NCBI RefSeq assembly: GCF_017654315.1
Contig: NZ_CP072203.1
Coordinates: 3,162,001-3,226,000 of the forward strand
Source: Gordonia polyisoprenivorans
Lineage (GTDB): Bacteria > Actinomycetota > Actinomycetes > Mycobacteriales > Mycobacteriaceae
Reading direction: 5' to 3'
DNA: 64,000 bases
The translations under genes were made by a program, and so were the position numbers. Each line of letters begins with the position of its first letter. Positions within the stretch are counted from its first letter, which is position 1. The notes beneath the pieces were generated by a model that was given only the letters and a program-made list of their open reading frames with translations, did no database searches and had not been told where the DNA came from. Positions 5,854 to 64,000 of this stretch are shown one piece after another.

Positions 5854-5860
5854 GACCGCC

Positions 5861-5890
5861 ACTATAGTTAACACGGCAAACGTTAACGCG
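5861..5890 (-). promoter_or_regulatory. Promoter with paired GTTAAC palindromes upstream of the 5140-5853 gene
   Basis: Between the hypothetical gene (start 5853) and the 3' end of yaaA there are two GTTAAC palindromes at 5867-5872 and 5882-5887, starting 15 bases apart. Read on the minus strand, a TATAGT hexamer follows the inner copy. The AT content is high for this genome. This could be a promoter with an operator, or a -35/-10 pair in which TTAACG acts as the -35. Confidence 0.35.
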
Positions 5891-5901
5891 AATGTGGGGC
5901 C

Positions 5902-6642: not shown

Positions 6643-6713
6643 CGCAACACTGTATCGACCGCGCCGGGCGGGCCGGGGAAACCGGGTCGCGGGCCCGACT
6701 AGACTTCTGACCC

Positions 6714-8456: not shown

Positions 8457-8492
8457 GGGCGCCGGGCGGATCGGAGTCGGCCGGTCGGCCGG

Positions 8493-9472: not shown

Positions 9473-9631
9473 GATGCCAGTCGGGCGTAGCCCGACGGTG
9501 GTCGCGGCACGCCCGTTCGTGCGCACTTCGTCGAGCCCCTGAGGTGTCCTCTACGATGGATGGGCGCCAGCGCAGCCGCACGGGCTGCACGCCACGGGTG
9601 AACCGGACAACTGAAGACGAGGGAGATCACG

Positions 9632-10177: not shown

Positions 10178-10241
10178 GCTACGCACCGAACTGTGAGATG
10201 TGCACCGAACTGTGGGATGTGCACCGATGGCGGGATACACC
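10169..10241 (+). repeat. 19-bp tandem repeat spanning the rimP stop codon
   Basis: Three 19-base units start at 10169, 10188 and 10207, each beginning GAACTGTG and ending GCACC, followed by a degenerate fourth unit at 10226-10241. The first unit contains the rimP stop codon. The second and third differ at one base. Further on, ACAAGTGAATA-type elements occur twice near 10279 and 10295. The spacer to nusA (142 bases) contains no gene. The array may have arisen by slippage; whether it affects RNA folding or nusA translation is unknown. Confidence 0.8.
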
Positions 10242-10319
10242 GAACCATGTGGGTCCGGCCATCGAGAACGACCATGTGACAAGTGAATACGCCGACAAGT
10301 GAATAGGAGTCCACGAGCA

Positions 10320-11354: not shown

Positions 11355-11381
11355 TCGCGGTCACTAGCGCTAGACTGAGCG

Positions 11382-11783
11382 ATGGTTCAGCGAAAGCCGT
11401 CGACCTCGTCACCCGACGATGGCCGTCGGGGTCGTCCGATTCGGATGTGCATCGGATGTCGGTCCCGTACCGACATCACCGCACTGGTCCGCGTCGTCGC
11501 CCGAGAGGGTGCCGACGGGCCCACGATCGCGGTCGATCTCGCGAAGACCATGCCGGGACGGGGTGCGTGGCTGCATCCGCGGGAGGACTGTGTGTCCGCC
11601 GCGGTGCGGCGGCGAGCGTTCGCCCCGGCATTGAGGGCGTCGCGTCTCGTCGTGAACCCCGACGACCTCGTAGAAGTGTTCGGTGCAGAAGTGATCGGTG
11701 CAACAGCACCATCACCGACCACGGACGACAGCAGGCCCGATACCGGGCCGGAACAGGTAGCAGAAGACATGAGCACACCGTGA
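11382..11783 (+). CDS. rnpM: YlxR family RNA-binding protein (RnpM)
   Basis: Basic protein of 133 residues with the YlxR signatures RMCIGCR and MPGRGAWLHP. Family members bind RNA; in Firmicutes the protein modulates RNase P and has been named RnpM. The C-terminal ~35 residues are acidic and disordered. It lies between nusA and infB, its conserved place. Confidence 0.88.
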   Translation: MVQRKPSTSSPDDGRRGRPIRMCIGCRSRTDITALVRVVAREGADGPTIAVDLAKTMPGRGAWLHPREDCVSAAVRRRAFAPALRASRLVVNPDDLVEVFGAEVIGATAPSPTTDDSRPDTGPEQVAEDMSTP

Positions 11784-11862
11784 AGTCACCACGATGAGCA
11801 CGTATCGGACGTAATCCGAGGCCGTAGCGGGCAGCCCGCTCGGCCTCCAAGTGAGGAGAGCA

Positions 11863-14718
11863 GTGGCAGGCAAGGCCCGCGTGCATGAACTGGCCAAGGA
11901 ACTGGGCGTGACGAGCAAACAGGTGCTCGAGCGACTCAAGGAACAGGGCGAGTTCGTCAAATCCGCGTCGTCGACCGTCGAGGCCCCGGTGGCCCGTCGA
12001 CTCCGCGAATCATTCCCGAACAAAGACGGCGGTTCGTCGGCGCCCAAGCCCGGCACCAACGGTTCCGCCCCCAAGCCCGGCGCGGGTCCGCGTCCGGGCG
12101 CCAAGCCCGGCGGCCCCAAGCCGGCACCGGCAGCCGAGCAGAAGGCCCCGGCTCGTACCGAGCAAACCCGTCCGGCCCCGCAGCCGGCCGCGGCCCCGGC
12201 GGCCCCGGCCCCCGCAGCTCCGACGCCCGCCGCCGCACAGGCGGCCCCGGCGACGCCGGCTGCACCGAAGCCGGCGGCCCCGACACCCGCGGCCGCCCAG
12301 CGGTCCGCGCCGCCCGCACAGCAGCCCGCACCGGCCCAGAAGCCGGGCGGACCGACGCCGGGACCGCGTCCCGGTGGTCCGAAGCCGGGCCCCCGTGCGC
12401 CGCGTGTCGGCAACAACCCGTACTCGTCGGCGCCCGCGCCGGCACCTCGACCCCCGGCCGGTCGTCCCGGCCCGGGCCAGGGCGGTCCCCGTCCCGGCGG
12501 TGGTCGTCCCGGTGCCCAGGGTGGCCGACCCGGCCCGGGCGGACCGCGTCCGGCTCCCGGTCAGGGCGGTCCCCGTCCGAGCCCGGGCAACATGCCCCCG
12601 CGCCCGAATCCGGGTGCGATGCCCAGTCGTGCCGCCCGTCCCGACGCCCGTCCGGGTGGTCGTAGCGGCGGCCCCGGTGGAAACCGCGGCGGCGGTGGCG
12701 GTGGATACCGCGGCGGCGGTGGCGGCGCTCCCGGTGGTGCTCCCGCCGGTGGTGGCGGTTTCCGCGGCCGTCCCGGTGGCGGCGGACGTGGCCGCGGCGG
12801 TGCCGCAGGCGCCTTCGGTCGACCCGGTGGTGCCCCGCGCAAGGGCCGTAAGTCGAAGCGGCAGAAGCGTCAGGAATACGATTCGATGCAGGCGCCGGCC
12901 GTCGGTGGCGTCCGGCTGCCGCGCGGCAACGGTGAGACCATCCGGCTCGCCCGCGGCGCATCGTTGTCGGACTTCGCCGACAAGATCGACGCCAACCCGG
13001 CATCGCTGGTCCAGGCGCTGTTCAATCTCGGTGAGATGGTCACCGCGACCGAGTCGGTCAATGACGAGACGCTCGAGCTGCTCGGTTCGGAGATGAACTA
13101 CACCGTCCAGGTGGTCAGCCCCGAGGACGAGGACCGCGAGCTACTCGAGAGCTTCGACCTGAGCTACGGCGAGGACGAGGGCGACGAGGAAGATCTCGAG
13201 CAGCGTCCGCCGGTGGTGACCGTCATGGGTCACGTCGATCACGGTAAGACCCGACTGCTCGACACGATCCGTAACGCCAGTGTCCGCGAGGGCGAGGCCG
13301 GCGGCATCACCCAGCACATCGGTGCCTACCAGGTCAACACGCACCTCAACGGCGACGACCGGTTGATCACCTTCATCGACACCCCCGGTCACGAGGCGTT
13401 CACCGCCATGCGTGCCCGCGGTGCGAAGGCCACCGACATCGCGATCCTGGTGGTCGCGGCCGACGACGGCGTCATGCCGCAGACGGTGGAGGCCATCAAC
13501 CACGCGCAGGCGGCCGATGTGCCGATCGTGGTGGCGGTCAACAAGATCGACAAGGAAGGCGCCGACCCGCAGAAGATCCGGGGTCAGCTCACCGAGTACG
13601 GCCTGATCCCCGAGGAGTACGGCGGTGAGGCGATGTTCGTCGACATCTCGGCCAAGCAGGGCACCAACATCGACGAACTGCTCGAAGCGGTGTTGCTGAC
13701 CGCGGACGCGTCGCTCGACCTGCGTGCCAATCCCGACATGGACGCCCAGGGCGTGGCCATCGAGGCCCACCTCGACCGCGGACGTGGACCGGTGGCGACC
13801 GTGCTCATTCAGCGCGGCACGCTGCACGTCGGCGATTCGATCGTTGCCGGTGACGCCTACGGTCGTGTGCGTCGCATGGTCGACGAGCACGGCGACGACA
13901 TCGAGGCGGCTCTGCCGTCGCGGCCGGTGCAGGTCATCGGCTTCACCTCGGTGCCCGGTGCCGGTGACAACCTGCTCGTCGTCGAAGAAGACCGCATCGC
14001 GCGTCAGATCGCCGACCGCCGCAATGCGCGCAAGCGCAACGCGCTGGCCGCACGCAGCCGCAAGCGGATCAGCCTCGAGGACCTCGATTCGGCGCTGAAG
14101 GAAACCAGCCAGCTGAACCTGATCCTCAAGGGCGACAACTCCGGTACCGTCGAGGCCCTCGAAGAGGCGCTGCTCGGTATCGACATGGGTGATGAGGTCT
14201 CGTTGCGGGTCATCGACCGCGGTGTCGGTGGTGTCACCGAGACCAACGTGAACCTGGCCGCGGCCTCGGACGCGATCATCATCGGATTCAACGTCCGAGC
14301 GGAGGGCAAGGCGACCGAGCTGGCCAACCGCGAGGGTGTCGACATCCGGTACTACTCGGTGATCTACCAGGCGATCGACGAGATCGAGAGTGCGCTCAAG
14401 GGCATGCTCAAGCCGATCTACGAAGAGGTGGAACTCGGCCGCGCCGAGATCCGCGCGATCTTCAAGTCGTCGAAGGTCGGCAACATCGCCGGCTGTCTGG
14501 TGCAGTCGGGCATCGTGCGCCGCAACGCCAAGGCACGTCTGCTGCGTGACAACGTGGTCGTCGCGGAGAACCTCACCATCGCCTCGCTCAAGCGGGAGAA
14601 GGACGATGCGACCGAGGTACGCGAGGGCTATGAATGTGGTCTCACACTGACGTACAGCGACATCAAGGTCGACGACGTCATCGAGTCCTATGAGCTCCAG
14701 GAGAAGCCGCGCGACTGA
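11863..14718 (+). CDS. infB: Translation initiation factor IF-2
   Basis: GTPase of 951 residues that positions initiator tRNA on the ribosome. A short N-terminal helix domain ([19 protein letters not shown]) is followed by ~270 residues of Pro/Ala/Gly/Arg low-complexity linker. The IF2_N domain comes next, then the G domain with [12 protein letters not shown] (G1), DTPGHEAF (G3) and VAVNKID (G4), then domains II-IV. GTG 11863 ([10 protein letters not shown]) was preferred to the in-frame GTG at 11851 because GAGGAG lies 6-11 bases upstream. The linker is the most GC-rich part of the window and creates long spurious antisense frames. Confidence 0.97.
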
Positions 14719-50919: not shown

Positions 50920-52155
50920 GTGGCCGCCGTCCTCACCACGGCTCAGGCCCGCCGCATCGCGCTGACGGCACAGGGATTCGCCGACCGGCCACCGACCGGG
51001 GCCGTCACCATGCGCCTGGTCGAACGAGTCGTGGCCCGCACCAAGCTGTTTCAGATGGATTCGGTCAACATCGCGGTGCGGGCGCACTATCTGCCGCTGT
51101 TCAGCCGGCTCGGCCCCTACGATCAGGCGCTGCTCGATCGGGCCGCCTGGCGGCCCGGCCGCGGGCGCCGGTTGTTGACCGAATACTGGGCGCACGAGGC
51201 CGCGCTCATCCCCGTCGACGACTGGCCGCTGTTCGGGTTCCGGATGGCCGAGTACCGCGACGGACGCTACCGTCACACGCGAGACACCATGCGACGCAAC
51301 CGTGAACTCGCCGACGATGTACGCGCCGTGATCGCCGAGACCGGGCCGGTGACCCCGCGGCGCATCGAGGAAGCCCTCGGTATCGAGCGCGCACCGCAGG
51401 CCGCGGGCGGCTGGTGGAACCGCGGCGAGGTCAAACACCTCTGCGAGGCGATGTTCGCCTCCGGCGAGTTCGCCGCGACCCGCGACGACGTCTTCGGACG
51501 TCACTACGACCTCGCCGAGCGGGTTGTCGGCGCCGATCGGGTGGACCGCCGTGTCGAGCGGGACGATGCGCACCGCGAACTCGTGACGCGTGCAGCATCG
51601 GCCCTGGGGGTGGCCACTGTCGCCGATCTCGCCGACTACTACCGACTCAAGACCGCCGACGTGCGGCCGGCCATCGCCGACCTGATCGACTCCGGTGTCC
51701 TGCAACCGGTTTCGGTGGATGGGTGGCGCGATGGTGCGTACCTCCACACCGCTGCAACGGTTCCCGCCCGGGTCCGCGCGGCCAATCGTGAACGGGGAGC
51801 CATTCTGTCGCCGTTCGATCCGCTGGTGTTCTTTCGGCCTCGTACCGAACGAATCTTTGGTTTTCACTATCGAATCGAGATCTACGTTCCCGAACACAAA
51901 CGCGTGCACGGGTATTACGTCCACCCGTACCTGCTCGGCGACGAGATCGTGGCGCGCGTCGATCTCAAGGCCGATCGGCAGCGTGGGGTGCTGATGGTGC
52001 CGGGAGCATTTTCCGAGGCGGGACAACATCTTTCGGAGATCGCGTCGGTATTGCGACGCGACCTGCAGGTGTTGGCCGACTGGCTCGGGATGGAGTCGGT
52101 CGAGATCGGTTCCCGCGGGGACCTTGCCGACACGCTACGTCATCTCTTCGACTGA
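50920..52155 (+). CDS. YcaQ-like winged-helix DNA glycosylase-family protein (HTH_42)
   Basis: 411 residues of the HTH_42/YcaQ-AlkX family. N-terminal ARRIALTAQGFADRPP and LFQMDSVNIAVRAHYLPLFS, then LLTEYWAHEAALIPVDDWPL carrying the Q/E-x-D-like active region of this family, and C-terminal winged helices (LLGDEIVARVDLKADRQRGV). E. coli YcaQ unhooks interstrand DNA crosslinks; streptomycete relatives confer resistance to DNA-alkylating natural products. GTG 50920 lies 1 base after the dfrA stop. Role here: DNA repair, inferred. Confidence 0.8.
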   Translation: MAAVLTTAQARRIALTAQGFADRPPTGAVTMRLVERVVARTKLFQMDSVNIAVRAHYLPLFSRLGPYDQALLDRAAWRPGRGRRLLTEYWAHEAALIPVDDWPLFGFRMAEYRDGRYRHTRDTMRRNRELADDVRAVIAETGPVTPRRIEEALGIERAPQAAGGWWNRGEVKHLCEAMFASGEFAATRDDVFGRHYDLAERVVGADRVDRRVERDDAHRELVTRAASALGVATVADLADYYRLKTADVRPAIADLIDSGVLQPVSVDGWRDGAYLHTAATVPARVRAANRERGAILSPFDPLVFFRPRTERIFGFHYRIEIYVPEHKRVHGYYVHPYLLGDEIVARVDLKADRQRGVLMVPGAFSEAGQHLSEIASVLRRDLQVLADWLGMESVEIGSRGDLADTLRHLFD

Positions 52156-52361
52156 CAAGCCAGAACTGCGCAAAGTAACGCCCCGACAGGGTTCCCGATA
52201 ACCACCACAAGTCGCGCTCATCGGCGAGGACGGCGGAAAAGCGTCGCTCGTGGCCGTGATCGGCGAGCGTCGAAGAGGTGGTGCGGATCGTCGCGCAGGG
52301 TTGCGATGCCGTCCGTTCCGGCACAGGGTGACGACAGGCCCGACCCGACAGAGGAGCTGGT

Positions 52362-55244
52362 GTGGAGCCATTGGAACAGACAGCGGCAGATCGGACAGCA
52401 CGGGACCGACCGGGCGGTCCGCACGGTGTCGCGGGAGACCCCGGCGGGAAAGCGCGCGGGCTGGTACGGCTGGCCGACATCGGCGTCGCCGTTCCCGAGT
52501 GGGTGGTGCTCGGTGCGGATCTGTTCGAAAGGTATGTGACGGCAACAGGTCTCACGAATCTGAGGGAGCTGGTGAACTCGGCCGAGGACGAGCGCTCGGC
52601 ACAGCGGTATGCGGCAGACCTACGGGAGCGAATTCTGGCGTCGCCGACGCCCGGCGACATCGACGATGCAATCGACGCGGCGTGGTTGCGGCTCGGCGGG
52701 GGACCGGTGGCGGTGCGGTCATCGGTGGCGGCCGAGGACGGTGCCGACCTCTCGTACGCAGGCCAGTTCGAGACCTACCTCAATGTCACCGGAACACAGG
52801 ATATCTCGCTCCGGGTGCGTCACTGCTGGGCGTCGGCGTATGCGGCGCGGGTGCTCACCTACGGGTGGGCGCGCGGGGTCCACGACGTCGGTGCGATCGC
52901 CGTGGTGCTGCAGCGACAGCTCGATCCGTGGACCAGTGGCGTCGTGTTCACCGCCAATCCGATGACCGGTGCGCGTGACGAGATGGTCGTCAGCGCGGTG
53001 TACGGACTCGGGGAGGGGCTCGTCTCCGGCGCCGTCGACGCCGACACCGTCATCGTCGGTTCCGACGGGTCGGTGCGCGATACGACCGTCGGGGACAAGG
53101 ACTTCCGGGTCGTCACGCTGCCCGGTGGTGGCGTCGCGAGCGTCGTCGTCGACGACGCCGAGCGGCGGCGCGCGGTTCTGACCGACGGCCAGATACGGGA
53201 ACTCGTCGCGACCGCCGAGCGGGTCGAGAGGGCCCTCGGTGGACCCCAGGACATCGAATGGGCCTTCGACGGTGCGGGTCTGTGGTTGCTGCAGGCCCGC
53301 CCGATCACCACCGTGAAGACCCCCGCGCCTCCGTCGAGACCGGTGTCGGACCGGCTGATCCGCGGTGCGGGCGAGTGTGTGGCCGACGACGATCTGCGAA
53401 TCTGGGACAACTCCAACATCATCGAGAGCTTCAACGGGATCACCTCGCCCCTGACCTACACGACTGCCGCCGACATCTACGGTCGCGTCTACCGCGGCTA
53501 CGCCGAGTCGATGCATCTGCCGCGAGCGGCACTCGCCCAGATCGACACCTGGACGCCGGTGATGCTGGGCTGTTTTCACGGACGTGTGTATTACAACCTG
53601 CTTCACTGGTACCGGATGGTCGGCATCGCGCCGGGGCATGCCCTCAACCGCAAGGTCCTCGAGGCCGCGCTCGGAGTCGCCCAACCACTCGACAAGGACC
53701 TGGCGCGAACGCTCAAGCCCTACTCCCTGGCCAACCCGATCCGGCGGCTCGCCGTGCGAGCGGTCACCACGGCAGTGTACCTCCGTCGGATGCGCGACAT
53801 CGACGACCTCGTCGAGGACTTCCTCACCGAGTTCTATCGCGTCTACGACCACTTCGAGAACCTCGATGTGGACACCATGACCGGTGAACAGGCCTATCGC
53901 ACCTATCGCGAGGTGGAGGGCGATCTGGTTCGCCGATGGGGCCCGCTGATGGTTCTCGACGCCATCCTGCTCACCCTGACCGGCGCGATGTATCTGTTGA
54001 CCAAGATCTTTCTGCCCAGGGCGCCCGAATGGTTCCTCTACGCCGTCGTCGGACCGGGCGCCGACGTCGAGTCCGCCGAACCGGCCCGGGCGATGGCCGC
54101 ACTCGCCGACCTGGTGTCCGCGGACCCCGACGTCCGAGAACTTGTCACCACCGCCGAACCCGCCTCGATCCGCCGTGCCCTGCACGAAGGCGGCCACGAT
54201 ACGGTCGCCGCAGCGGTGGAGGACTACCTGCAGCGCTACGGATACCGAAGTCTCGACGAACTGAAGCTCGAAGTCCCCGACCTGCGTGAGGATCCGTCGT
54301 CGGTGTTCGTCATGCTGCGCAGCGCACTGGCGCGCAACGCGGAATCGGCCGCACCTCCCGACCCGGGCACGCATTCGGATCCGGCCATGCGCTCCCTCGG
54401 TCCGCCGCCGGAGTCCGCCCAGCAGTACCTCGACGCCCACCTGCACGGACTGCGTCGCCGGACGTATGACGCGCTGCGCGGCAAACTATCCCGGTGCGCC
54501 GCACATCGCGAGCGGCTGCGATTCGCTCGCACAAGGGCTTTCGGCATGGTCAAACGGTTGATCCGCGTGATGGGTCGCGACCTCGCCGAGCGTGGGGTGC
54601 TCGACGACTTCACCGACGTCTTCGAGCTGACCGTGACCGAACTCCGCGAATGTTACGAATCGGGCCCACCCGACGATGTAACGGCCATGGTGTGCGCACG
54701 CAGATCGGCCCGCCACGCGGACTCGACCCTGATCGCGCCGGAACGCTTCGAGACCCGCGGACAGCGGTTCGACGACGAGGCACTCGCCGCGCAGGGCTGG
54801 ACTCCCGTGGCCGAGACCGCCGCTGCGCCTGCGGGATCGGTGCTCGCGGGCGCCCCGTCGTGTGCGGGATCGGCCGAGGCGACCGCCCATGTGGTGACCG
54901 AACCGATCGGCGTCGACGGCGGGATCCTCGTGGCCTATCGCACCGACCCCGGGTGGGTGGCCGCACTGCCGTCCGCCTCGGCACTGGTCATCGAACGCGG
55001 CAGCCCGCTGACCCACGTAGCCATCGTCGCCCGCGAACTCGGCATCCCGACAGTGGTGCAACTCCGTGACGCGACGGCGTTGCTGCGCACCGGGATGCGG
55101 GTGCGCGTCGACGGCACCGCGGGAACCGTGACGGTCGTGACGGACGCGCCGCAACCGACCGATACCGCACCCGACGACCCGCCATCGTCGGCCACCACCA
55201 CCCCGGACGGGGCGCGACTCGAGAGGACCCCCGACCATGCGTGA
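52362..55244 (+). CDS. PEP synthase / rifampin phosphotransferase-like enzyme
   Basis: 960 residues, first gene of the seven-gene operon. The ATP-grasp PPDK_N domain spans ~25-325 (GGKARGLVRLADIGVAVPEW; VRSSVAAEDGADLSYAGQFE; SGVVFTANPMTGA; DIEWAFDGAGLWLLQARPIT). A middle domain (~350-800) carries IWDNSNIIESFNGITSPLTY and RVYYNLLHWYRMVG, as in rifampin-phosphotransferase-type proteins. The swivelling phosphohistidine domain (~850-930) has GSPLTHVAIVARELGIPT with His885 as phospho-carrier. All three RPH/PEPS modules are present; the PEP/pyruvate TIM barrel of true PEP synthase is not. It should move a beta-phosphate from ATP via His to an unknown acceptor. GAGGAG precedes GTG 52362. Confidence 0.82.
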   Translation: MEPLEQTAADRTARDRPGGPHGVAGDPGGKARGLVRLADIGVAVPEWVVLGADLFERYVTATGLTNLRELVNSAEDERSAQRYAADLRERILASPTPGDIDDAIDAAWLRLGGGPVAVRSSVAAEDGADLSYAGQFETYLNVTGTQDISLRVRHCWASAYAARVLTYGWARGVHDVGAIAVVLQRQLDPWTSGVVFTANPMTGARDEMVVSAVYGLGEGLVSGAVDADTVIVGSDGSVRDTTVGDKDFRVVTLPGGGVASVVVDDAERRRAVLTDGQIRELVATAERVERALGGPQDIEWAFDGAGLWLLQARPITTVKTPAPPSRPVSDRLIRGAGECVADDDLRIWDNSNIIESFNGITSPLTYTTAADIYGRVYRGYAESMHLPRAALAQIDTWTPVMLGCFHGRVYYNLLHWYRMVGIAPGHALNRKVLEAALGVAQPLDKDLARTLKPYSLANPIRRLAVRAVTTAVYLRRMRDIDDLVEDFLTEFYRVYDHFENLDVDTMTGEQAYRTYREVEGDLVRRWGPLMVLDAILLTLTGAMYLLTKIFLPRAPEWFLYAVVGPGADVESAEPARAMAALADLVSADPDVRELVTTAEPASIRRALHEGGHDTVAAAVEDYLQRYGYRSLDELKLEVPDLREDPSSVFVMLRSALARNAESAAPPDPGTHSDPAMRSLGPPPESAQQYLDAHLHGLRRRTYDALRGKLSRCAAHRERLRFARTRAFGMVKRLIRVMGRDLAERGVLDDFTDVFELTVTELRECYESGPPDDVTAMVCARRSARHADSTLIAPERFETRGQRFDDEALAAQGWTPVAETAAAPAGSVLAGAPSCAGSAEATAHVVTEPIGVDGGILVAYRTDPGWVAALPSASALVIERGSPLTHVAIVARELGIPTVVQLRDATALLRTGMRVRVDGTAGTVTVVTDAPQPTDTAPDDPPSSATTTPDGARLERTPDHA

Positions 55245-58200
55245 TCGAACCGGCCGTGACGCACCCGAGATCATCCGAGGATGGCTGCGCGACCCCGCAC
55301 CGGACAAGGGCATTCACCTCGCCGATGAGGACGGCGGTTGGACCTTCCACTCCTACACCGACATCGCGGGGCGAGCGTTGCGCATCGCCGGTGCCATGCG
55401 AGAGCACGCGGTACGGCCCGGTGACGGAGTGTGCGTGATCCTGCCCACCGATGTCACGTGCGCGGCAGCGTTCTACGCGGTGTGGGCGTGCGGCGCGGTC
55501 TTCACTCCGATCACCCCACCGACCTTTGCCGACCTCGACGAGTACACCGCGCACGCCGCGTCGATCCTCGCCCAGGCGGCTCCCGCGCTCGTCGTGACCG
55601 CCCCGGGCCTGACGCCACTGGTGACCGACGCGGTGTCCGCGGCCGGACTCGATGCCCCGGTCATGGAGGTGGGCGCCGCAGGTTCGGATGCGACGCCGCT
55701 CGACGATCTCGCGCCGACGACCGAATGCGCTCTGCTGCAGTTCACCTCCGGATCCACCGGCACGCCGCGCGGGGTCGAGATCTCCTGGCCGAACCTCGCG
55801 ACCAACACCGCGATGATCACCGACCTGCTGTGCTGGCGTGCCGATGAGCCGATGGCGTCGTGGCTTCCGCTCTACCACGACATGGGATTGGTCGGCGGTT
55901 TCCTCACCACGGTCACCAATCAGGAAGATCTGTACCTGATGCGACCCGACCAGTTCGTGCGTGATCCGGTGCGCTGGTTGCGCGCGATGGAGATCGCCCG
56001 CCACACACCGTCTCCCTCGTTCTCCTTGGGCTATCTGGCCCACCGTGTTCGCCCCGAGGACATCGACGGTCTCGACCTGTCGGGATGGCGCACCCTCGCG
56101 GTCGGTTCCGAGCCGGTGGAACTGTCGGATCTGCAGTCGTTCTGCCGTCTTGTCGCCCCGCAGGGCTTCGACCCGGCAGCGATCACCCTGGCCTACGGAC
56201 TGGCCGAATCGACATTGATGGTCAGTTCCTCGAGGCGGGACCGACCGATCACCCTGCTCCGACCGGCCTCGCCGCTTCGGTTCGGGGAGACGGTCGACAC
56301 CGGCCGGTGTGCGGTGTTCGACGTCGACGCCGACTATGCGGGATCGGGATGGATTGCCGGCCTGGGGTGTTCGACCCCTGACTCCGAGGTCGCCGTCGTC
56401 GATGACGATGGCCGGCCGGTGCCCGAGGGGGTACTCGGTGAGGTCACGGTCCGCGGTGGCTCCGTCGCGCGCGGCTATCTCGCCGGTTCATCGGGCGGTT
56501 CGACGCGCATCGTCGACGGGGTGCTCCACACCGGTGATGCCGGTTTTCTCCGCGACTCCGAGCTCTACGTCCTCGGTCGGATGGGATCGAGCCTGAAGGT
56601 GCGGGGCCGCTCGGTGTTCATGGAGGACGTCGAATCGACGGTGGCGGTGGAATGCGGGATCACCAAGGGCAAATTGGCAGCGGTGGCGATCACCGATGCC
56701 GGGTCGAGAGGCGTCGCACTGTTCGCCGAGACCGCGCCGGGAGAATGGATCTCCCACGCCCGCACGGTCATTCGCGGGCAGCTCGGGCCCGCTCAGACGG
56801 TCACCGTCATCACCGGAGGGCGCGGCCTGATCCGGCGCACCTCGAGTGGAAAGCCGCGCCGGCGCCACATGTGGCAGATGTTCACCGCAGGTGAGATGGC
56901 CGACGCCGTGGTGCATGAGGTCGACGGGACCGCGAGTACCGCTGCGACGAGCACCGTCGCGTCCGCCCGGGAGGCCGGCGACGACCGGGCCGTTCCGACG
57001 CTGCCCGCGCAGCGCGTGGCTCAACTCCTCGATACCGCACTCGACTCGATCGTCGTTCCCGACAACTGTGCGATCGTGTTCGAGGGGTCGCTGGCCGAGG
57101 GATTCGGCAACGAGGGCTCCGACGTGGACTTTCTCGTCGTGGCGGGCGGTGACGAAGAACTACCGACGTTACCGACCGTGCTGTTCGGTGACGGGCGCCG
57201 CCTCGAGGTGCGCACCCGCTCGCTCGCTCAACTGCGGCACCACTTGCAGACGGTCGCCGATCATCTGGCCGCCGGCACCGTTTCCGAGCTCGACGAGGAT
57301 CTCCTCAACCGGTGTCAACGATTCCTGCGCTCGACCACGATTCGCACGAGCGCACTCGTCGACCTCGACGAGCTGCGGGCGATCATCGACCACCGCCGGT
57401 TCGGCGGCGTGATGGCGCGATGGTGGCGCCACCGCACGGTCTCGGTGCTGCGGCATGTCACCACTCTGCGGACCCTCGGCGCCGACGACGAAGCGCTCGG
57501 GTGGATGCGTGATGCACTCGTCCAGGCAGCCAAGGCATGGTGCGCCGAGCGCGGCGAAACCTATGTGGAGACCAAATGGCTTCCCCGGCAACTCGATCGG
57601 ATCGGCGACGAGAAGATCACCGACCGGTGGACGGCCGCGACCGCACCGTCGGTGCCCGACGCCGACGCGACCGGTTCGTGGTGGGTCACTGCCACCGACC
57701 TGCTCGCGGACCTCGGAATCGACGCGAACGAGTGGACGGATGCGCGGCAGCTTCGGCTCGCGCGTGTTCCCGGGGTGACAACGTGGACCATCGGTTCGCG
57801 TGTGCACGTGGTGCGTGGCGCGCGGGACGTCTTCGTGCTCTCCGATCCCGCGGCACAAGCGTGGCGGCAGATGGTGTTCCGTCGTCCGGTGGCCGAGATC
57901 TGCGACCGTGCCGGGCAGGCGGAGCACGGCCCGGTCGCGGAGTACCTTGCCGAGTTCCTTCGACTCGGTGTCGTCGGAGTGGACTGGGCAGGCGCCGGGC
58001 CCATCCGGCCGGCGATGGCGATGTGCGAGGCCACCGAACCGTACACACCACCGCCGGCCATGAGCGGTCCGATCGTCGGACTGGGTGGGGCAGTCGCCGC
58101 GCCGGGGTTGGGCATTGCAGAGCTCTCGCCGTTGCCCGCAGAACGTTTCGCCTCGGCCGGCCTGCAACTCACCTGGGCCAACATCGTCGCCGAGAACGCG

Positions 58201-58722
58201 CGGGAAGATCTCGTCGGCGCCCTCAAGAGTGGGCAGGGCGGTGTGGCCGATGTTGCGGCGCATCGCCTGATCGCCATGATCGCCCGAATGGTGCTCTCGG
58301 CGTGGGGAGTTCATCCTCTCCCTCCCGATGCCACCCCGGCAGCCACGCTCCGCAGGGTCCTGCAGAGCCCGATGATCGAACCCTCGATACCCGCCGTCAT
58401 CGAGCGGGCCGCCCATGTCCGTTTCGACGACATCTTGTCTTCCGGCGGCGACGGACTCGCCGAACTCGAGGTACTCGACGGACTCCTCGGCGCGGTCCGG
58501 GCACTCGTCGGAAGTGACTTCCCCGCCTCCTTCGACTCCCGCGACCAATGGCGCCGCACCCTCGAGATCGCCTACGACTGGGTTCGTCTGGGCACTCACC
58601 TGGGGGTTCGGTTGCCGCTGGCCGAGGCCGCCGACCTGATGAACAGCGGAGGCGGACAACCACATCCGGTCGCCGACGCCCCGCCGGCACCGTCCACGCC
58701 GCTCGGGGGTGGCGCCCGGTGA
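55237..58722 (+). CDS. Fatty acyl-AMP ligase - nucleotidyltransferase - PqqD-like fusion
   Basis: 1161 residues. (1) ~1-555: fatty acyl-AMP ligase with LLQFTSGSTGTPRGVEISW (ATP loop), WLPLYHDMGLVGGFL, LAYGLAESTLMVS and GDAGFLRDSELYVLGRMG, the FAAL form that loads carrier proteins. (2) ~595-800: nucleotidyltransferase of the MNT/KNT fold, GSLAEGFGNEGSDVD (Gly617-Ser618, Asp629, Asp631), then helices. (3) ~850-915: PqqD-like winged helix (DVFVLSDPAAQAWRQM; YLAEFLRLGVVG). (4) ~930-1120: helical region. I know of no described enzyme with this order. It overlaps the gene upstream by 8 bases and the carrier protein by 4. It likely activates a fatty acid for the ACP and nucleotidylates some intermediate; the second step is inference. 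Confidence 0.8.
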   Translation: MRDRTGRDAPEIIRGWLRDPAPDKGIHLADEDGGWTFHSYTDIAGRALRIAGAMREHAVRPGDGVCVILPTDVTCAAAFYAVWACGAVFTPITPPTFADLDEYTAHAASILAQAAPALVVTAPGLTPLVTDAVSAAGLDAPVMEVGAAGSDATPLDDLAPTTECALLQFTSGSTGTPRGVEISWPNLATNTAMITDLLCWRADEPMASWLPLYHDMGLVGGFLTTVTNQEDLYLMRPDQFVRDPVRWLRAMEIARHTPSPSFSLGYLAHRVRPEDIDGLDLSGWRTLAVGSEPVELSDLQSFCRLVAPQGFDPAAITLAYGLAESTLMVSSSRRDRPITLLRPASPLRFGETVDTGRCAVFDVDADYAGSGWIAGLGCSTPDSEVAVVDDDGRPVPEGVLGEVTVRGGSVARGYLAGSSGGSTRIVDGVLHTGDAGFLRDSELYVLGRMGSSLKVRGRSVFMEDVESTVAVECGITKGKLAAVAITDAGSRGVALFAETAPGEWISHARTVIRGQLGPAQTVTVITGGRGLIRRTSSGKPRRRHMWQMFTAGEMADAVVHEVDGTASTAATSTVASAREAGDDRAVPTLPAQRVAQLLDTALDSIVVPDNCAIVFEGSLAEGFGNEGSDVDFLVVAGGDEELPTLPTVLFGDGRRLEVRTRSLAQLRHHLQTVADHLAAGTVSELDEDLLNRCQRFLRSTTIRTSALVDLDELRAIIDHRRFGGVMARWWRHRTVSVLRHVTTLRTLGADDEALGWMRDALVQAAKAWCAERGETYVETKWLPRQLDRIGDEKITDRWTAATAPSVPDADATGSWWVTATDLLADLGIDANEWTDARQLRLARVPGVTTWTIGSRVHVVRGARDVFVLSDPAAQAWRQMVFRRPVAEICDRAGQAEHGPVAEYLAEFLRLGVVGVDWAGAGPIRPAMAMCEATEPYTPPPAMSGPIVGLGGAVAAPGLGIAELSPLPAERFASAGLQLTWANIVAENAREDLVGALKSGQGGVADVAAHRLIAMIARMVLSAWGVHPLPPDATPAATLRRVLQSPMIEPSIPAVIERAAHVRFDDILSSGGDGLAELEVLDGLLGAVRALVGSDFPASFDSRDQWRRTLEIAYDWVRLGTHLGVRLPLAEAADLMNSGGGQPHPVADAPPAPSTPLGGGAR

Positions 58723-59042
58723 GCATCGACGAGCAGCACACCTCGGGCCCGGACCGCCAGGTCCGACGGATCGTGGTCGCGATGGCGCCGAATCCGCCCG
58801 CGGATGCGCCGGCGGCAACCGATCGCCTCCGCGAGGACCTCGGATACGAATCCGTCCGGCTCATCGAGCTCACCATCGCCCTGGAGAGAGCGTTCGGCCT
58901 GTCGCCCCTGCCGCCCGCCGAACTTGCCGGCGTGCGCCGGGTCTGCGACGTCGTCGCCCTCATCCGTCGCCAGATCGGAGACGACCACAGTCTCCCGGTC
59001 GGCGCCGACAGATCGGAGAAGGCCGATGACCCCGTCACATGA
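58719..59042 (+). CDS. Acyl carrier protein
   Basis: 107 residues. The phosphopantetheine site is LGYESVRLIELTIALERAFG, with Ser45 as attachment residue (E-S instead of the usual D-S). N-terminal ~20 residues and a C-terminal acidic tail lie outside the four-helix core. GTG 58719 overlaps the ligase stop (GTGA) and the gene's 3' end overlaps the SDR start by 17 bases. Predicted partner of the FAAL domain and substrate of PptT. Confidence 0.85.
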   Translation: MSIDEQHTSGPDRQVRRIVVAMAPNPPADAPAATDRLREDLGYESVRLIELTIALERAFGLSPLPPAELAGVRRVCDVVALIRRQIGDDHSLPVGADRSEKADDPVT

Positions 59043-60126
59043 TCGCCGGCGTGATCACATCCTGGTGACCGGTGCCGCGGGCCTGGTCGGTACCGAGGTG
59101 TGTCTCAGGCTCGAGGCGGCGGGCTGGCCGGTGATCGGCGTGACCCATCGCAACGAATCACTGATCGCCAACGACGGTGCACCCGTGACCATTTCCGACA
59201 CGATCACCGGTGACGTGCGACTCGCCGGATTCGGTCCGGCGATGGCCGCCCGGGCCGATTCGCTGGCCGGTCGGGTGTCGACGATCGTGCACTGCGCGGC
59301 GACCACCGCCTTCGATGCCGCCGACGAGGACTACGCGCAACTCAATGTGGGTGGCACCGCGCATGCGGTCGACCTCGCGCGCGCCTGGGACGTCCCGTTG
59401 GTGCACGTGTCGACCGCATACGTCTGCGGCATGCGGGGCGGCACGATCGCCGAGGACGAGCTCGACGTCGGCCAGGTATTCGGAACCCGTTACGAGAAGA
59501 GCAAATTCGATGCCGAGAAGCTCGTCGAACGGGCCCGTGCCGACGGGCTTCGCGCGGTGACGGTCCGGCCTGGCATCGTGACCGGCGTGAGCACCGACGG
59601 CGCCATCCGGGACCACAAGAACCTCTACACCGTCGTCAAACTCATGGTCGAGGGCAAACTGCGCACGCTGCCGGGGCGCTATGACGCCACACTGTCGCTC
59701 GCGCCGGTCGATCATGTCGCCGACATCGTCGCCGCCGCCGCGTGCCAAGCCGTAGATCTCGATGGAAAGGTGCTGCACGCGGTGAGTTCTCGACCATTGA
59801 CCCTGCGGGAGCTCTCCGACGTCCTGGCCGAGTATCCCTCCTTCCATGTGGCCACCTTCGTCCCGGATGCCACCTTCGATCCCGATGCACTCGAGGTGAT
59901 CGAACGCGAGTACTTCCGCCGGGTGGGCTCGCTCTACACCAGCTACTTCCAACGGCGACAGTACTTCTCGACTCGCAATGCCGAGACTGTTCTGGGGCGG
60001 CCGGCACCGGACTGCGGCCCCGAATACCTGCGCTTGCTGCTCGACCATTGCCTCGACATCGGCTATCTCGGTGCGCCCCTGCCCGATGTGGAGACCGTTC
60101 TCGCCGGCCTCGGTGGTGCTCGATGA
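59026..60126 (+). CDS. Extended SDR / thioester-reductase-like protein
   Basis: 366 residues. NAD(P)-binding HILVTGAAGLVGTEVCLRL, VSTIVHCAATTAFDA, HVSTAYVCGMRGG and catalytic RYEKSKFDAEKLVE (Y-x3-K), then VTVRPGIVTG; the layout is that of NAD_binding_4/thioester-reductase domains. It may reduce an acyl-ACP to an aldehyde/alcohol or act on a keto intermediate. GGAGAAGG precedes ATG 59026, inside the ACP gene's end. Confidence 0.8.
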   Translation: MTPSHDRRRDHILVTGAAGLVGTEVCLRLEAAGWPVIGVTHRNESLIANDGAPVTISDTITGDVRLAGFGPAMAARADSLAGRVSTIVHCAATTAFDAADEDYAQLNVGGTAHAVDLARAWDVPLVHVSTAYVCGMRGGTIAEDELDVGQVFGTRYEKSKFDAEKLVERARADGLRAVTVRPGIVTGVSTDGAIRDHKNLYTVVKLMVEGKLRTLPGRYDATLSLAPVDHVADIVAAAACQAVDLDGKVLHAVSSRPLTLRELSDVLAEYPSFHVATFVPDATFDPDALEVIEREYFRRVGSLYTSYFQRRQYFSTRNAETVLGRPAPDCGPEYLRLLLDHCLDIGYLGAPLPDVETVLAGLGGAR

Positions 60127-61115
60127 CTCTGAAGACCGAACGCGCACACCACGCGATGACCCCCATGACCGCCGATCTGCTCACCCGGATCGGCGTCGAC
60201 GGCGCCGACCTGTCGACCCGCCTCGGCGACACCTACGTGCTCGAGGCGATCGAACATCTCGATCGGATGGGCGTGGAGGCAGGCTGGTTCGCCACCCGGT
60301 GCTCACTACTGCTCCTCAAACCCGACGCGGTGGTGGCCCGGGGTGTCGCGCCGACGCTGGAGTGGCTGTCGGCACATCGGTGGCGAGTTCTGCACGCCGC
60401 GCGGGTCGAGTCGGGACGCCACCTCGCGAGGGCGTTGTGGCAGACCTCGTGGACACGGGCGTCGGTGGAGCGCCGCCGACTGGCCGACCTCCTGGTCGAG
60501 ATATGCGACTCCATGGTCCTGCTCGTCACCGACGACCGAAGCGCTGTCGGCGTTTCCGAGGGCGCTGTCGAGGACGTCGAGGGCGCTGTCGGCGTCGTGC
60601 AGGGCGCTGTCGGCGGGGAGTCGGCGACCGAGCGGCTGACGCGGGAGAAGGGACCCACCGATCCGACGGCGGGTGCCCCGGGTGAGCTGCGGCATGCGCT
60701 CGGTCACCGCAGCTACCTGCTGAATCTCGTGCATACACCCGACACGCCCGTCGAGGTGTTGCGGGAATGGGCGATCATGCTCGACGAACCAGCGCGCGCG
60801 GCCTGCCTGCAGGACGTGATCGACGGTGGTGTCGGCGTCGACGAGCGGGTGGCGGCGTTGGCTGCGGAACTGTATTCGCAGACACCGGCGCGTGAATTCG
60901 GGCGCGCAGTGGCTGCCGAGCTGGTCGCTGCCCAGATGAGTGCTGCTGCATGTACTGCGACCCCGGTGCCCGACCTCACCGATGACCGGGTCTGTGCCGA
61001 CATGCTGCGCAGCGCCTGGGCGAACGGGATCGACCTGGACCCGTGGTCGGTGATCGTGCTCGGCTCCCACATTCTGCCCATGACATCCGACCCGACCCGA
61101 CGGGAGTGCAGATGA
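60123..61115 (+). CDS. Nucleoside-diphosphate-kinase-like protein with inserted repeat
   Basis: 330 residues. Residues ~60-95 show the NDPK opening (SLLLLKPDAVVARGVAPTLE) and ~180-215 the closing part (LRHALGHRSYLLNLVHTPDT then VEVLREW) with the catalytic His in NLVHTPDT. Between them lies an acidic insertion (~140-165) built from repeated E/Q-GAV units (EGAVEDVEGAVGVVQGAVGG) that canonical NDPKs lack. The C-terminal ~110 residues are extra. A 150-residue housekeeping Ndk is therefore not what this is; it may act on a pathway nucleotide or phosphate. ATGA overlaps on both sides. Confidence 0.65.
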   Translation: MTLKTERAHHAMTPMTADLLTRIGVDGADLSTRLGDTYVLEAIEHLDRMGVEAGWFATRCSLLLLKPDAVVARGVAPTLEWLSAHRWRVLHAARVESGRHLARALWQTSWTRASVERRRLADLLVEICDSMVLLVTDDRSAVGVSEGAVEDVEGAVGVVQGAVGGESATERLTREKGPTDPTAGAPGELRHALGHRSYLLNLVHTPDTPVEVLREWAIMLDEPARAACLQDVIDGGVGVDERVAALAAELYSQTPAREFGRAVAAELVAAQMSAAACTATPVPDLTDDRVCADMLRSAWANGIDLDPWSVIVLGSHILPMTSDPTRRECR

Positions 61116-62107
61116 CCACGCACATGACACCGGCCCCGGACCATCTCACCGTGGCGCCCACCTTCCACAGTCAGACGATTCCGCGCGAACTCGTTCATCG
61201 GTGTTCCGTCTCGGAGGTGTTCGTCACGTCGTTGTCGCGCGCACAGCCGGATCTCGGCGACGACGAATTCCGCGTCGGTGCGCAGCTTCCGCGGATGCAC
61301 GCCTACTTCGGGGATCACCGTGGGGCGCAGGCGGGTCGTCACGACCCGTTGTTGGTGATGGAAACCGCGCGGCAGGCCGCAATCGCGGTGACCCACCAGT
61401 TCTTCGACGTACCGCTCGACAGTGCCTTCCTGGTCCGCACCTTCAACGGCGCCGCCGACGCACCCGTTGACGACGAGTTGTGGCGGCCGCGATCCCGGCC
61501 CGCAGACGTTGACATCTCCGTCGGCATCGGCGCCCGCCATGTGGTCGCCGACCGGCTGACGGGACTCGACATGGTGCTGGCGATCTCGGCTGATGGTGTG
61601 CCGTTGATGACCGTGGACGGGTCGTTCTCCTGGACGACCCGCGCGCAATGGTCGGCCCTGCGAGCCCGGGCGCGCGACGGTGCGGAACGCGGGCGCGTCC
61701 ACGTGGCCGAGCCGGCAGATCCACATGTCGTCGGCCGCTGCGACCCGCGCAACGTCGTGGTCGGGGTGCGCGCGCGGGACGGCCACGAGACGCGGGGCGA
61801 ACTCGTCGTCGACACCGCCCACCCGGGATTGTTCGATCACGAACTCGACCACGTGCCGGGCACCCTGCTCCTCGAGGCGGCGCGACAGATCGCGCTTGCC
61901 CATGTCGGTGCCGACGTGCGGATCGCAACGGTCCGCTGTTCGTTCGGCCGGTTCGTCGAACTCGATCGGTCGGCGATGTGCATCGCACGTGTCGATCACG
62001 GGCACGACCCGACCGACCCCGGAGCGGCCACCTCGGTGATGGTGACGATCGAGCAGGGCGGCGCCGTGTGTGCCGAGATCCGGCTGGGTGTGGTGACCGG
62101 GACGTGA
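61112..62107 (+). CDS. AfsA-family (A-factor biosynthesis) hotdog protein
   Basis: 331 residues with two tandem AfsA hotdog repeats. Repeat one: LVHRCSVSEVFVTSL, AQLPRMHAYFGDH and DPLLVMETARQAAIAVTHQF. Repeat two: DPRNVVVGVRAR, FDHELDHVPGTLLLEAARQI. In Streptomyces AfsA condenses a beta-ketoacyl thioester with dihydroxyacetone phosphate, the first step to gamma-butyrolactone signals; Rhodococcus has a related gblA system. Here it is embedded between an NDPK-like and a UbiA-like gene, so the acceptor could differ. GGGAG precedes ATG 61112. Confidence 0.82.
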   Translation: MTTHMTPAPDHLTVAPTFHSQTIPRELVHRCSVSEVFVTSLSRAQPDLGDDEFRVGAQLPRMHAYFGDHRGAQAGRHDPLLVMETARQAAIAVTHQFFDVPLDSAFLVRTFNGAADAPVDDELWRPRSRPADVDISVGIGARHVVADRLTGLDMVLAISADGVPLMTVDGSFSWTTRAQWSALRARARDGAERGRVHVAEPADPHVVGRCDPRNVVVGVRARDGHETRGELVVDTAHPGLFDHELDHVPGTLLLEAARQIALAHVGADVRIATVRCSFGRFVELDRSAMCIARVDHGHDPTDPGAATSVMVTIEQGGAVCAEIRLGVVTGT

Positions 62108-63036
62108 TGGTGGCCGAAACCCTTCGGGCGTCGTCGGTCTCGGTCGTGCGCATTGCCCGGTTCACCGCGGTCATGTTCAAGCCGCAGTATCTGCTTTTCG
62201 GGGTCCTGTGGGTGCTGGCGGCCGAAGGGACTGCGGCCCGGCTCAGCGAGGTGCGTTGGGATCTCGGTCCGGCAACCGTCGTGCGTGTGGTGGTCGTGGT
62301 GCTCGTTCTGCTGTTCCTGCGGATGGTCGACGAACAGAAGGATCTCGACTACGACCGCGTGTATCACCCGGGCCGGCCGCTGGTGACCGGTGCGGTCACC
62401 GCTGCCGATCTGCGCGTCGCGATGCTCGTGCTCGGTGTGGTCGTGGTGGTGCTGTCCGGGATGGCGAGTGCGGGCTCGGCGATCGCGATCGCGGCGGTGC
62501 TGGCCTACGGGCTCGGTCTGTGGGCCGCCGAGACGCTGTGGCCTGCGTTGCGACGCTCGGTGCTCGGCAATCTCGCAGTCACCTACCCGGTGCAACTGGT
62601 GTTGGCGGCGTACGTGATCGGCTCGGCGGTCGACACCGGACAAGTGGGGGCAACATGGTCGACGGCGTGGGTCGCGGTGCTCATGGCCGGGTCGTTCCTG
62701 CAGTTCGAGTTTGCGCGGAAGATTTCCCGCCGGCCGCGACCCGGTGAGATGTACTACTCGAATCCGCTCGGTGCCGCCGGCGCGGTCGGTGTCTCGATGG
62801 GCTTCGTCGCCCTCACAACCGTCGCGGTCCTGGTGATCTGGACGCCGTGGCGGTTTGGAGTAGTTTCTGCCCTCTTCGGTTGGACGGCAGTCGTTCTCGC
62901 CGTCGTCCCGGTCGGCGCCACGGCGGTGTGGCTGCGCTCGCGCCATGAGGATTACCCGCCGACGCCCGCCGCGGTGTACGTCCTGAGCGTCTACCTCGCG
63001 GTGATCGGCGCGGCGCTGGCCACCCCGACGGGATGA
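62107..63036 (+). CDS. UbiA-family prenyltransferase
   Basis: 309 residues with eight or nine hydrophobic segments. The first Asp-rich motif is VDEQKDLDYDRVYHPGRPL (D-x3-D-x3-D pattern); the second region, LQFEFARKISRRPRPGEMYY, carries the E-x2-RK form seen in some UbiA homologues. It should transfer an isoprenyl group from a prenyl diphosphate to a membrane-accessible acceptor. The TGA of the AfsA gene shares a base with ATG 62107. Last gene of the operon. Confidence 0.85.
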   Translation: MVAETLRASSVSVVRIARFTAVMFKPQYLLFGVLWVLAAEGTAARLSEVRWDLGPATVVRVVVVVLVLLFLRMVDEQKDLDYDRVYHPGRPLVTGAVTAADLRVAMLVLGVVVVVLSGMASAGSAIAIAAVLAYGLGLWAAETLWPALRRSVLGNLAVTYPVQLVLAAYVIGSAVDTGQVGATWSTAWVAVLMAGSFLQFEFARKISRRPRPGEMYYSNPLGAAGAVGVSMGFVALTTVAVLVIWTPWRFGVVSALFGWTAVVLAVVPVGATAVWLRSRHEDYPPTPAAVYVLSVYLAVIGAALATPTG

Positions 63037-63063
63037 GGTGACCCAGCGATGATTACCGCACCC

Positions 63064-64000
63064 TCATCGCCTCGGCTCGAGGCGCACCCGGACCTGCGAG
63101 GGAGCGGCGACGAAATCGGTCGTCGACGGCCGCGCCCGGCGGCGGCCGGCCGGACGGACATTCCAGCGCGAGTAGAGTGCCGCCGAGCACAGCAGGATCG
63201 TCGAGATCGCGAACGTGTTTCCCGGGCAATGGCGTTCTCCCACACCGAAAGCGAGATCGGCTTTCCGGTCGAGATGCCCGGCTCGGTCCGCCTCCCATCG
63301 GTTCGGGTCGAAGGTCTCCGGATCGGTGTAGAACTGTGGGTCGTGCAGGACGAGGTACGGGCTGTAGATCACCGTCGAACCGTCCGGCAGGGTGAGACGT
63401 CCGGTGTCGTCGTCGCCGAAGGTGACCGGCCCGTCGGCGGTCTGACTGCTGATCCACGGCCCCCACATCCGCAGTGTCTCGGCCACCACCCGACGCAGGT
63501 ACGTGAGCTGTTCGAGGTGGTCGGGGTGTACCGGTCCCTCGCCGACGACGCGTTCGACCTCCTGTGCAACAAGGGAACTCACGTGCGGGTTGCGGGCGAC
63601 CTCGTACCACACCCAGGCCAGGATCGATGCCGTCGAACCGACGCCGGCGGCCACCATAAGCAGCAGTTCGTCGATGATCTCGTCGTCGGACAGGCCGATT
63701 CCGGTGTCCTCGTCGGTGTGTCCGACGAGGACCGACAGGACGTCGCCGTGATCGACGCCTTGGCTTCGGTAGCGGCGAACGACGGTGCCGATGGCCTCGC
63801 GCAGCATCGCCGAATCGCGGGCGAAACGCCGGTTCGCGCGCATCCGCATCCGGCGGACGGGGGCGGGCAGCGCGCCGCGGATGATCACCTCGCCGAGCAA
63901 CCAGGGCACGGTCTCACGCACCCGATCGAGCGCGTCGGCGCCGAAGTCGGCACGGAACAGCGTCGAGGTGACGGTCTGCAACACCAGACCGTGCGCCTCG
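63064..64000 (-). CDS. Cytochrome P450 (N-terminus beyond window)
   Basis: The C-terminal ~312 residues of a P450; the frame stays open to the right edge. I-helix LLLMVAAGVGSTASILAWVW (A-G-x2-S/T-T variant), K-helix ETLR, and haem loop FGVGERHCPGN (F-x2-G-x-R-x-C). Convergent with the UbiA gene, 27 bases apart. It may oxidise the product of the operon, but being on the opposite strand it could belong to another unit. Confidence 0.88.
   Translation of the reverse strand, partial: EAHGLVLQTVTSTLFRADFGADALDRVRETVPWLLGEVIIRGALPAPVRRMRMRANRRFARDSAMLREAIGTVVRRYRSQGVDHGDVLSVLVGHTDEDTGIGLSDDEIIDELLLMVAAGVGSTASILAWVWYEVARNPHVSSLVAQEVERVVGEGPVHPDHLEQLTYLRRVVAETLRMWGPWISSQTADGPVTFGDDDTGRLTLPDGSTVIYSPYLVLHDPQFYTDPETFDPNRWEADRAGHLDRKADLAFGVGERHCPGNTFAISTILLCSAALYSRWNVRPAGRRRARPSTTDFVAAPSQVRVRLEPRR

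What the first reader, a model, noticed from the sequence alone, without database searches (positions are those of the whole stretch)
52362..63036. Undescribed-looking operon joining phosphotransfer, acyl activation, AfsA chemistry and prenylation
Seven genes overlap end to start, so they form one pathway: RPH/PEPS-like kinase, FAAL-nucleotidyltransferase-PqqD fusion, ACP, SDR, NDPK-like protein, AfsA protein and UbiA enzyme. FAAL plus ACP supply an acyl thioester; AfsA enzymes condense a beta-ketoacyl chain with a phosphorylated C3 unit; UbiA attaches a prenyl group. The phosphate- and nucleotide-handling proteins have no place in known butyrolactone routes. I cannot match this set to a characterised product; a prenylated or nucleotide-linked lipid or signal is possible.
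Basis: partly seen in the sequence, partly recalled or inferred. Interest (0 to 1): 0.85.

Follow-up and report, generated by a model that had tools for sequence, protein, structure and literature searches.

The report
Salinipostin-type operon in Gordonia
The seven overlapping genes are a real, conserved operon, but not an unmatched one: they resemble the gene set that marine Salinispora bacteria appear to use to make salinipostins, here with extra sugar-transfer and oxidation genes that may give a decorated, so far unseen product.

Summary
In detail: seven intact genes (window 52362-63036) overlap end to start. The claim that the set matches nothing characterised does not hold. The same functions form a nine-gene run in a genome of exactly 5,183,331 bp, the published size of Salinispora tropica CNB-440. 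It holds that genome's only AfsA match, so I take it to be the salinipostin (spt) operon; spt gene count and numbering are recalled. The window has eight of the nine functions (FAAL and nucleotidyltransferase fused) and lacks the flavin oxidoreductase. In 31 of 36 further loci of the family search all eight keep one strand and order. The block, with a glycosyltransferase-P450 fusion and a second glycosyltransferase, sits between two genes that follow each other in six other Gordonia. The UbiA-like protein keeps one Asp motif but has an invariant ExARK where a second is expected, so ordinary prenylation is unlikely. Best reading: a butyrolactone core joined through phosphate to a fatty-alkyl chain, then oxidised and glycosylated. 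The kinship is well supported; the product is inferred.

The parts
52362..55244 (+). PPDK/rifampin-phosphotransferase-like protein (960 aa), ATP-grasp part plus swivelling His domain; 46% to S. tropica gene 1
   Evidence: His885 in 38 of 38 aligned rows. NCBIfam would name it phosphoenolpyruvate synthase (NF004881, 918 of 883 bits)
55237..58722 (+). Fatty acyl-AMP ligase (about residues 1-570) fused to an ANT/KNTase-like nucleotidyltransferase with a large further region (about residues 590-1161)
   Evidence: two separate genes in S. tropica (39% and 39%)
58719..59042 (+). Acyl carrier protein, start GTG 58719, Ser45 as expected phosphopantetheine site
   Evidence: Ser in 31 of 31 rows; 46% to S. 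tropica
59026..60126 (+). Extended SDR with male-sterility/thioester-reductase-like domain; proposed acyl-ACP reductase
   Evidence: 47% to S. tropica
60123..61115 (+). NDPK-like phosphotransferase, 330 aa, with Lys66, Asn201 and catalytic-type His204 kept
   Evidence: 31% to S. tropica
61112..62107 (+). AfsA/ScbA-family butyrolactone synthase, two hotdog stretches; the only AfsA match in this genome
   Evidence: (219.2 bits, cut-off 200); 30% to S. tropica; tree
62107..63036 (+). UbiA-superfamily-like membrane protein with DxxxDxxxD and invariant ExARK where a second Asp motif is expected
   Evidence: 31% to S. tropica
63064..64000 (-). C-terminal part of a GT4 glycosyltransferase-cytochrome P450 fusion (879 aa; L029 3064-5703, i.e. 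on to about window position 65703)

Best explanation
This is a salinipostin-type (spt-like) biosynthetic operon. Proposed working: the FAAL domain and the ACP load a fatty acid; the SDR reduces the acyl thioester to an aldehyde or alcohol, which becomes an alkyl chain. AfsA condenses a beta-ketoacyl chain with dihydroxyacetone phosphate to a butenolide phosphate (established AfsA chemistry, recalled). The PPDK-like and NDPK-like proteins, both with phosphohistidine-type active sites, and the nucleotidyltransferase activate the alcohol or the phosphate stepwise; the UbiA-like protein, with its Mg-diphosphate-type motif, joins alkyl chain and butyrolactone through phosphate, as in the phosphotriester of salinipostins. 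The GT4-P450 fusion and the GT1 enzyme, which lie in the same inserted block, then oxidise and glycosylate the product. Shown here: homology, conservation, boundaries, conserved active-site-type residues. Inferred: every chemical step, their order, and the product.
For: Nine-gene run in a 5,183,331-bp contig, equal to the published size of S. tropica CNB-440 (passage), holding the only AfsA match of that genome. Eight of nine functions shared at 30-47% identity. All eight on one strand in the same order in 31 of 36 further loci of the family search. Residues invariant in 38 of 38 rows (some near copies): PPDK His885, NDPK Lys66/Asn201/His204, NT EGS...SDxD, UbiA D75/D79/D83; ACP Ser in 31 of 31. 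Boundaries: in 6 of 6 single-contig Gordonia genomes that I picked, AlkZ is followed by HAD without the operon, with gaps of 91 and 82 bases in two and 1.8-3.9 kb in four; in the window's genome the seven genes, GT4-P450 and GT1 fill that place. Three loci without AfsA and NDPK (L092, L096, L097) keep PPDK, FAAL-NT, ACP, SDR and a UbiA-like protein and carry two thymidylate-kinase-like proteins (Pfam-tested in L096, by eye in the others); L110 has one. That points to a monophosphate-to-diphosphate step. Salinipostins are enol phosphates with a long alkyl ester, related to A-factor (PMC6681047, passages).
Against: Kudo 2020 and Creamer 2021 are not held: that spt has nine genes with AfsA as spt9 is recalled, and the spt paper that I could read in passages (PMC8609351) gives no gene list. 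The window has no counterpart of the S. tropica flavin (LLM/F420-type) oxidoreductase and no nitroreductase. AfsA identity to S. tropica is only 30%; in the AfsA tree operon rows are not one group (three changes), the S. tropica row has a long branch at an open fork, and the Mycobacteriales operon clade has 91/85 support, not starred. NCBIfam's phosphoenolpyruvate-synthase model passes its cut-off for the first gene, so an ordinary PEP-synthase-like role is not excluded. The ANT-like fold match is modest. GT and P450 are not universal: GT1 14, GT4 11, P450 16 of 31 loci, lower bounds because stretches are cut at 20 kb.
Confidence: 0.65

Rival explanations
1. The end product is a free gamma-butyrolactone or butenolide signal; the phosphate- and alkyl-handling genes serve another or an accessory product.
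For: AfsA passes the ScbA/BarX cut-off. The spt operon is recalled to make both salinipostins and plain butyrolactones. A TetR protein resembling ScbR (128.5 of 150 bits) lies elsewhere in the genome.
Against: None of the nine genes of the block is a receptor, unlike the gblA-gblR(-gblE) layout of Rhodococcus (PMC5735094, passages); no NF041196 match above cut-off in the genome; eight functions kept together in 31 of 36 loci.
Confidence: 0.2
2. One reading: UbiA is a true prenyltransferase and the product is a prenylated or nucleotide-linked lipid.
For: Conserved DxxxDxxxD motif; a nucleotidyltransferase resembling the ANT type; an HMG-CoA reductase gene near a UbiA-like gene in the related locus L092.
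Against: ExARK replaces the expected second Asp motif in all 37 rows and all 38; UbiA is under Pfam's cut-off; no prenyl-diphosphate synthase domain among the proteins of the block; the review passages speak of alkyl groups in salinipostins (PMC6681047).
Confidence: 0.1
3. Independent recruitment: the likeness to the S. tropica operon is convergent use of common families.
For: Low identity for AfsA, NDPK and UbiA (30-31%); AfsA tree does not group the operon rows.
Against: The same families, including the unusual NT and NDPK-like types, stand together in nearly the same order in family genomes, in six loci of another order and in S. tropica.
Confidence: 0.03

Closest known systems
   Same: PPDK, FAAL, NT, ACP, SDR, NDPK, UbiA-like and AfsA genes in one run; the first six functions in the same order
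   Different: Window: FAAL and NT fused; AfsA before UbiA, not last; no LLM/F420-type oxidoreductase; GT4-P450 fusion and GT1 beside it
   Same: PPDK, NT, SDR, NDPK, AfsA, UbiA in the same order
   Different: No FAAL or ACP hit; a nitroreductase follows UbiA; no GT4-P450 or GT1 hit
Clusters of Nocardia, Tsukamurella and Mycobacterium-like genomes (L002, L060, L061, L063, L064, L071-L101)
   Same: All eight functions in the window's order in 31 of 36 loci; many with GT1 and GT4-P450
   Different: A nitroreductase hit in 16 of 31 (mostly between AfsA and UbiA); P450 without GT4 in some (L063, L064, L093, L098, L099)
Classical gbl signal clusters (Rhodococcus gblA-gblR-gblE, PMC5735094 passages)
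   Same: AfsA-family synthase
   Different: Window has no adjacent receptor and adds phosphotransfer, FAAL, NT and UbiA-like genes
Rifampin phosphotransferase RPH (5fbs and others)
   Same: ATP-grasp stretch and C-terminal His stretch align
   Different: Far below the curated RPH cut-off (326.1 of 999 bits); substrate unknown

Membership tests
Salinipostin-type (spt-like) cluster | AfsA-family synthase inside the operon | tested here: met
   NCBIfam ScbA_BarX 219.2 bits, cut-off 200. The S. tropica protein itself scores 195.2, just under it
Salinipostin-type (spt-like) cluster | PPDK, FAAL, NT, ACP, SDR, NDPK and UbiA-like genes with the AfsA gene | tested here: met
   Each found in the S. tropica locus L109 by tblastn with the window's proteins
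Salinipostin-type (spt-like) cluster | Ninth gene: flavin/F420-type oxidoreductase as in S. tropica | tested here: not met
   None among the nine genes of the block; L109 has one (Bac_luciferase, TIGR03619). Relatives have a nitroreductase or neither, so I do not treat it as defining
Salinipostin-type (spt-like) cluster | Product is a cyclic enol phosphate with alkyl ester | not testable with these tools
   Needs expression and mass spectrometry
Classical gamma-butyrolactone signal cluster | Adjacent receptor (gblR/ScbR type) | tested here: not met
   None in the block; no genome match above the NF041196 cut-off (best 128.5 of 150)
UbiA prenyltransferase | Two Asp-rich motifs (recalled as defining) | tested here: not met
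   First kept; ExARK in place of the second in 38 of 38 rows
Rifampin phosphotransferase | Score over the curated RPH cut-off | tested here: not met
   326.1 against 999 bits
Phosphoenolpyruvate synthase (NCBIfam NF004881) | Score over the curated cut-off | tested here: met
   918.4 against 883 bits; the name is an annotation, the reaction was not tested
Nucleoside diphosphate kinase | Lys and catalytic-type His of the NDPK fold | tested here: met
   Lys66, Asn201, His204 in 38 of 38 rows; profile match to solved NDPKs, best E 3.7e-8. Substrate unknown

The most novel reading that the evidence does not exclude
The operon makes a glycosylated, oxidised salinipostin-like phosphotriester (sugar and oxygen added by the GT4-P450 fusion and GT1), and its phosphotransfer proteins turn a saturated fatty alcohol into an alkyl diphosphate that the atypical UbiA-like protein uses as donor: a reaction new to the UbiA superfamily. 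The presence of thymidylate-kinase-like proteins in related loci that lack NDPK is the hint.
Probability: 0.25. Interest if true: 0.72.

Novelty: new variant of a known kind. Interest (0 to 1): 0.45.

Why it matters
It ties an apparently orphan Gordonia operon to a class of phosphate natural products with antimalarial (salinipostins) and lipase-inhibiting (cyclipostins) activity (PMC6681047, passages), and shows that Gordonia, Nocardia, Tsukamurella and Mycobacterium-like genomes carry a version with glycosyltransferase and P450 genes that predicts new members. It also gives a defined set of proteins (PPDK, NDPK or thymidylate-kinase-like, ANT-like NT, atypical UbiA) with which to work out how the rare phosphotriester is built.

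Tried and rejected
Promoter and terminator scan of 51900-64000: nothing above the shuffles. The NT part has no clear relative among solved structures by sequence (best E 0.029); a model and fold search were used. The AfsA tree alone cannot decide spt kinship. SAM_HAT_N was meant as a mark for Salinispora but matches all 3 genomes tested and 8 of 14 controls, so it is not used. Paper searches whose listings showed no description of this gene set: (30 of 44 papers listed); of the listed papers I looked at passages of seven, the rest only as listings. Of the NDPK-only hits, L065-L070 show no other gene of the set (L068 shows nothing) and were dropped; L107 and L111 have only weak matches.

Rows dropped or merged before counts: the family search gave 38 loci in 37 genomes, the window included; 36 of the other 37 were fetched, one (G613, at a contig start) was not. 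In the tree, 19 of 72 rows (near copies or fragments) were left out and the window row was added.
Full report
What is there. The seven genes are intact and overlap by 8, 4, 17, 4, 4 and 1 bases. Pfam and NCBIfam confirm a PPDK/RPH-like protein, a fatty acyl-AMP ligase, an ACP, an extended SDR with a male-sterility/thioester-reductase-like domain, an NDPK-like protein, an AfsA protein and a weak UbiA match. The first gene passes NCBIfam's cut-off as a phosphoenolpyruvate synthase (918.4 of 883 bits) but not as rifampin phosphotransferase (326.1 of 999). The window lies in a 6.03-Mb single-contig genome; its closest named relative is Gordonia polyisoprenivorans NBRC 16320, with operon proteins at 80-96% identity.

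How conserved. AfsA was searched in 59 Gordonia genomes, the window's included: 8 match, of which only the window's and G031 (89%) lie in this operon; for the others the short stretches show no other gene of the set. In the family, 36 of the 37 further NT loci were fetched; in 31 of 36 all eight functions stand on one strand in the window's order, and the five without are L092, L095, L096, L097 and L100.

The match to a known operon. G1154 is a single contig of 5,183,331 bases. PMC4712552 (passage) lists Salinispora tropica CNB-440 with 5183331 bases. Its locus L109 holds, in order, PPDK, FAAL, NT, ACP, SDR, NDPK, UbiA-like, an LLM/F420-type oxidoreductase and AfsA, and that AfsA is the genome's only match. 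Identities to the window for the eight shared functions are 46, 39, 39, 46, 47, 31, 31 and 30%. That the salinipostin operon has nine genes, spt1-9, with the AfsA gene as spt9, I recall from Kudo 2020 and Creamer 2021; neither is held; I saw Creamer 2021 only as a title in a reference list. PMC8609351 (passages) names spt among nine experimentally characterised Salinispora clusters, in 112 strains of seven species, and lists salinipostin standards; it gives no gene list and did not detect the spt product. In a sample of 31 genomes of the genus as the database draws it, 3 have this AfsA.

Boundaries. In 6 of 6 other Gordonia genomes (single-contig ones that I picked from the 59) the gene called AlkZ here is followed by the HAD gene with no hit to PPDK, UbiA, GT4-P450 or GT1; by match ends the gap is 91 and 82 bases in two and 1.8-3.9 kb in four. 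In the window's genome, and in G. polyisoprenivorans, the seven genes, the GT4-P450 fusion and GT1 lie between AlkZ and HAD. So the block is nine genes in about 15 kb. Sixty-four of 64 database homologues of the fusion carry both GT4 and P450 domains, and those with names come from Gordonia, Nocardia and Tsukamurella; the search's length limits shut out stand-alone P450s or GT4s, which do exist (P450 alone in L063, L064, L093, L098, L099). GT1 is nearest, but far below cut-off, to rifamycin glycosyltransferase Rgt (103.5 of 800 bits) and to activator-dependent glycosyltransferases (67.3 of 440).

How it may work. Active-site-type residues are invariant in 38 of 38 aligned rows (some near copies) for PPDK, NDPK, NT and UbiA, and the ACP serine in 31 of 31. 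RPH structures align over the ATP-grasp part and over a C-terminal stretch with the His. The NT part resembles aminoglycoside nucleotidyltransferases, enzymes that put a nucleotide on a hydroxyl group, in a modest fold match. UbiA keeps RxxDxxxDxxxD, but ExARK stands where a second Asp motif would be expected. In four of the five family loci without AfsA other genes are seen: a ketosynthase-ACP-thioesterase protein (Pfam-tested in L096; similar by eye in L095 and L097), an HMG-CoA reductase (L092), an ABC transporter ATPase (Pfam-tested in L096) and two thymidylate-kinase-like proteins (Pfam-tested in L096; similar by eye in L092 and L097); L110 has one. NDPK has no hit in L092, L095, L096 and L097; PPDK is found at 34-35% in L092, L096 and L097 but not in the stretch held for L095. 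This suggests a portable set that makes and transfers an activated alkyl phosphate, with AfsA as one of several partners. That is inference.

Results against. The AfsA tree needs three changes of label for the operon rows and leaves the S. tropica row at an open fork with a long branch. The oxidoreductase is missing in the window. GT1, GT4 and P450 are seen in 14, 11 and 16 of 31 loci, lower bounds because stretches end at 20 kb. The ANT-like match and the UbiA label are both weak by score.

Standing of the claim. Kinship with the S. tropica operon: very likely. A phosphate-linked alkyl butyrolactone as product: more likely than not. Glycosylation and oxidation of it: plausible from the shared block only. 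Whether earlier surveys of spt-like clusters already listed Gordonia or the fusion I cannot tell; the searches named in Tried and rejected found no held paper that says so.

Noticed in passing
L092, L095, L096, L097 (family genomes G512, G453, G674, G592): Related loci with FAAL-NT-ACP-SDR but no AfsA or NDPK hit; among them UbiA-like proteins, thymidylate-kinase-like proteins, ABC transporter parts, a ketosynthase-ACP-thioesterase protein and, in L092, an HMG-CoA reductase. Product unknown to me.
   Followed up: partly
L110 (G1254) 4507-11600: Short cluster of ACP, SDR, a small membrane protein with a UbiA-like motif but no Pfam hit, PPDK, NT and a thymidylate-kinase-like protein, without an AfsA hit.
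   Followed up: partly
L111 (G974) 1440-13830: Two NDPK-like genes near weak NT and SDR matches, without the rest of the set.
   Followed up: no
   Followed up: no
G000:C1:135372-135899 (L112): TetR-type protein closest in this genome to the butyrolactone receptor model (128.5 of 150 bits), far from the operon.
   Followed up: no
Gordonia genomes G016, G044, G048, G050 (L021-L024): Other AfsA-family genes at 36-38% identity; no other gene of the set in the short stretches seen.
   Followed up: no
L101 (G625): The NT match of an otherwise complete operon is in three pieces; the genome is rated 83% complete, so sequencing errors are possible.
   Followed up: no
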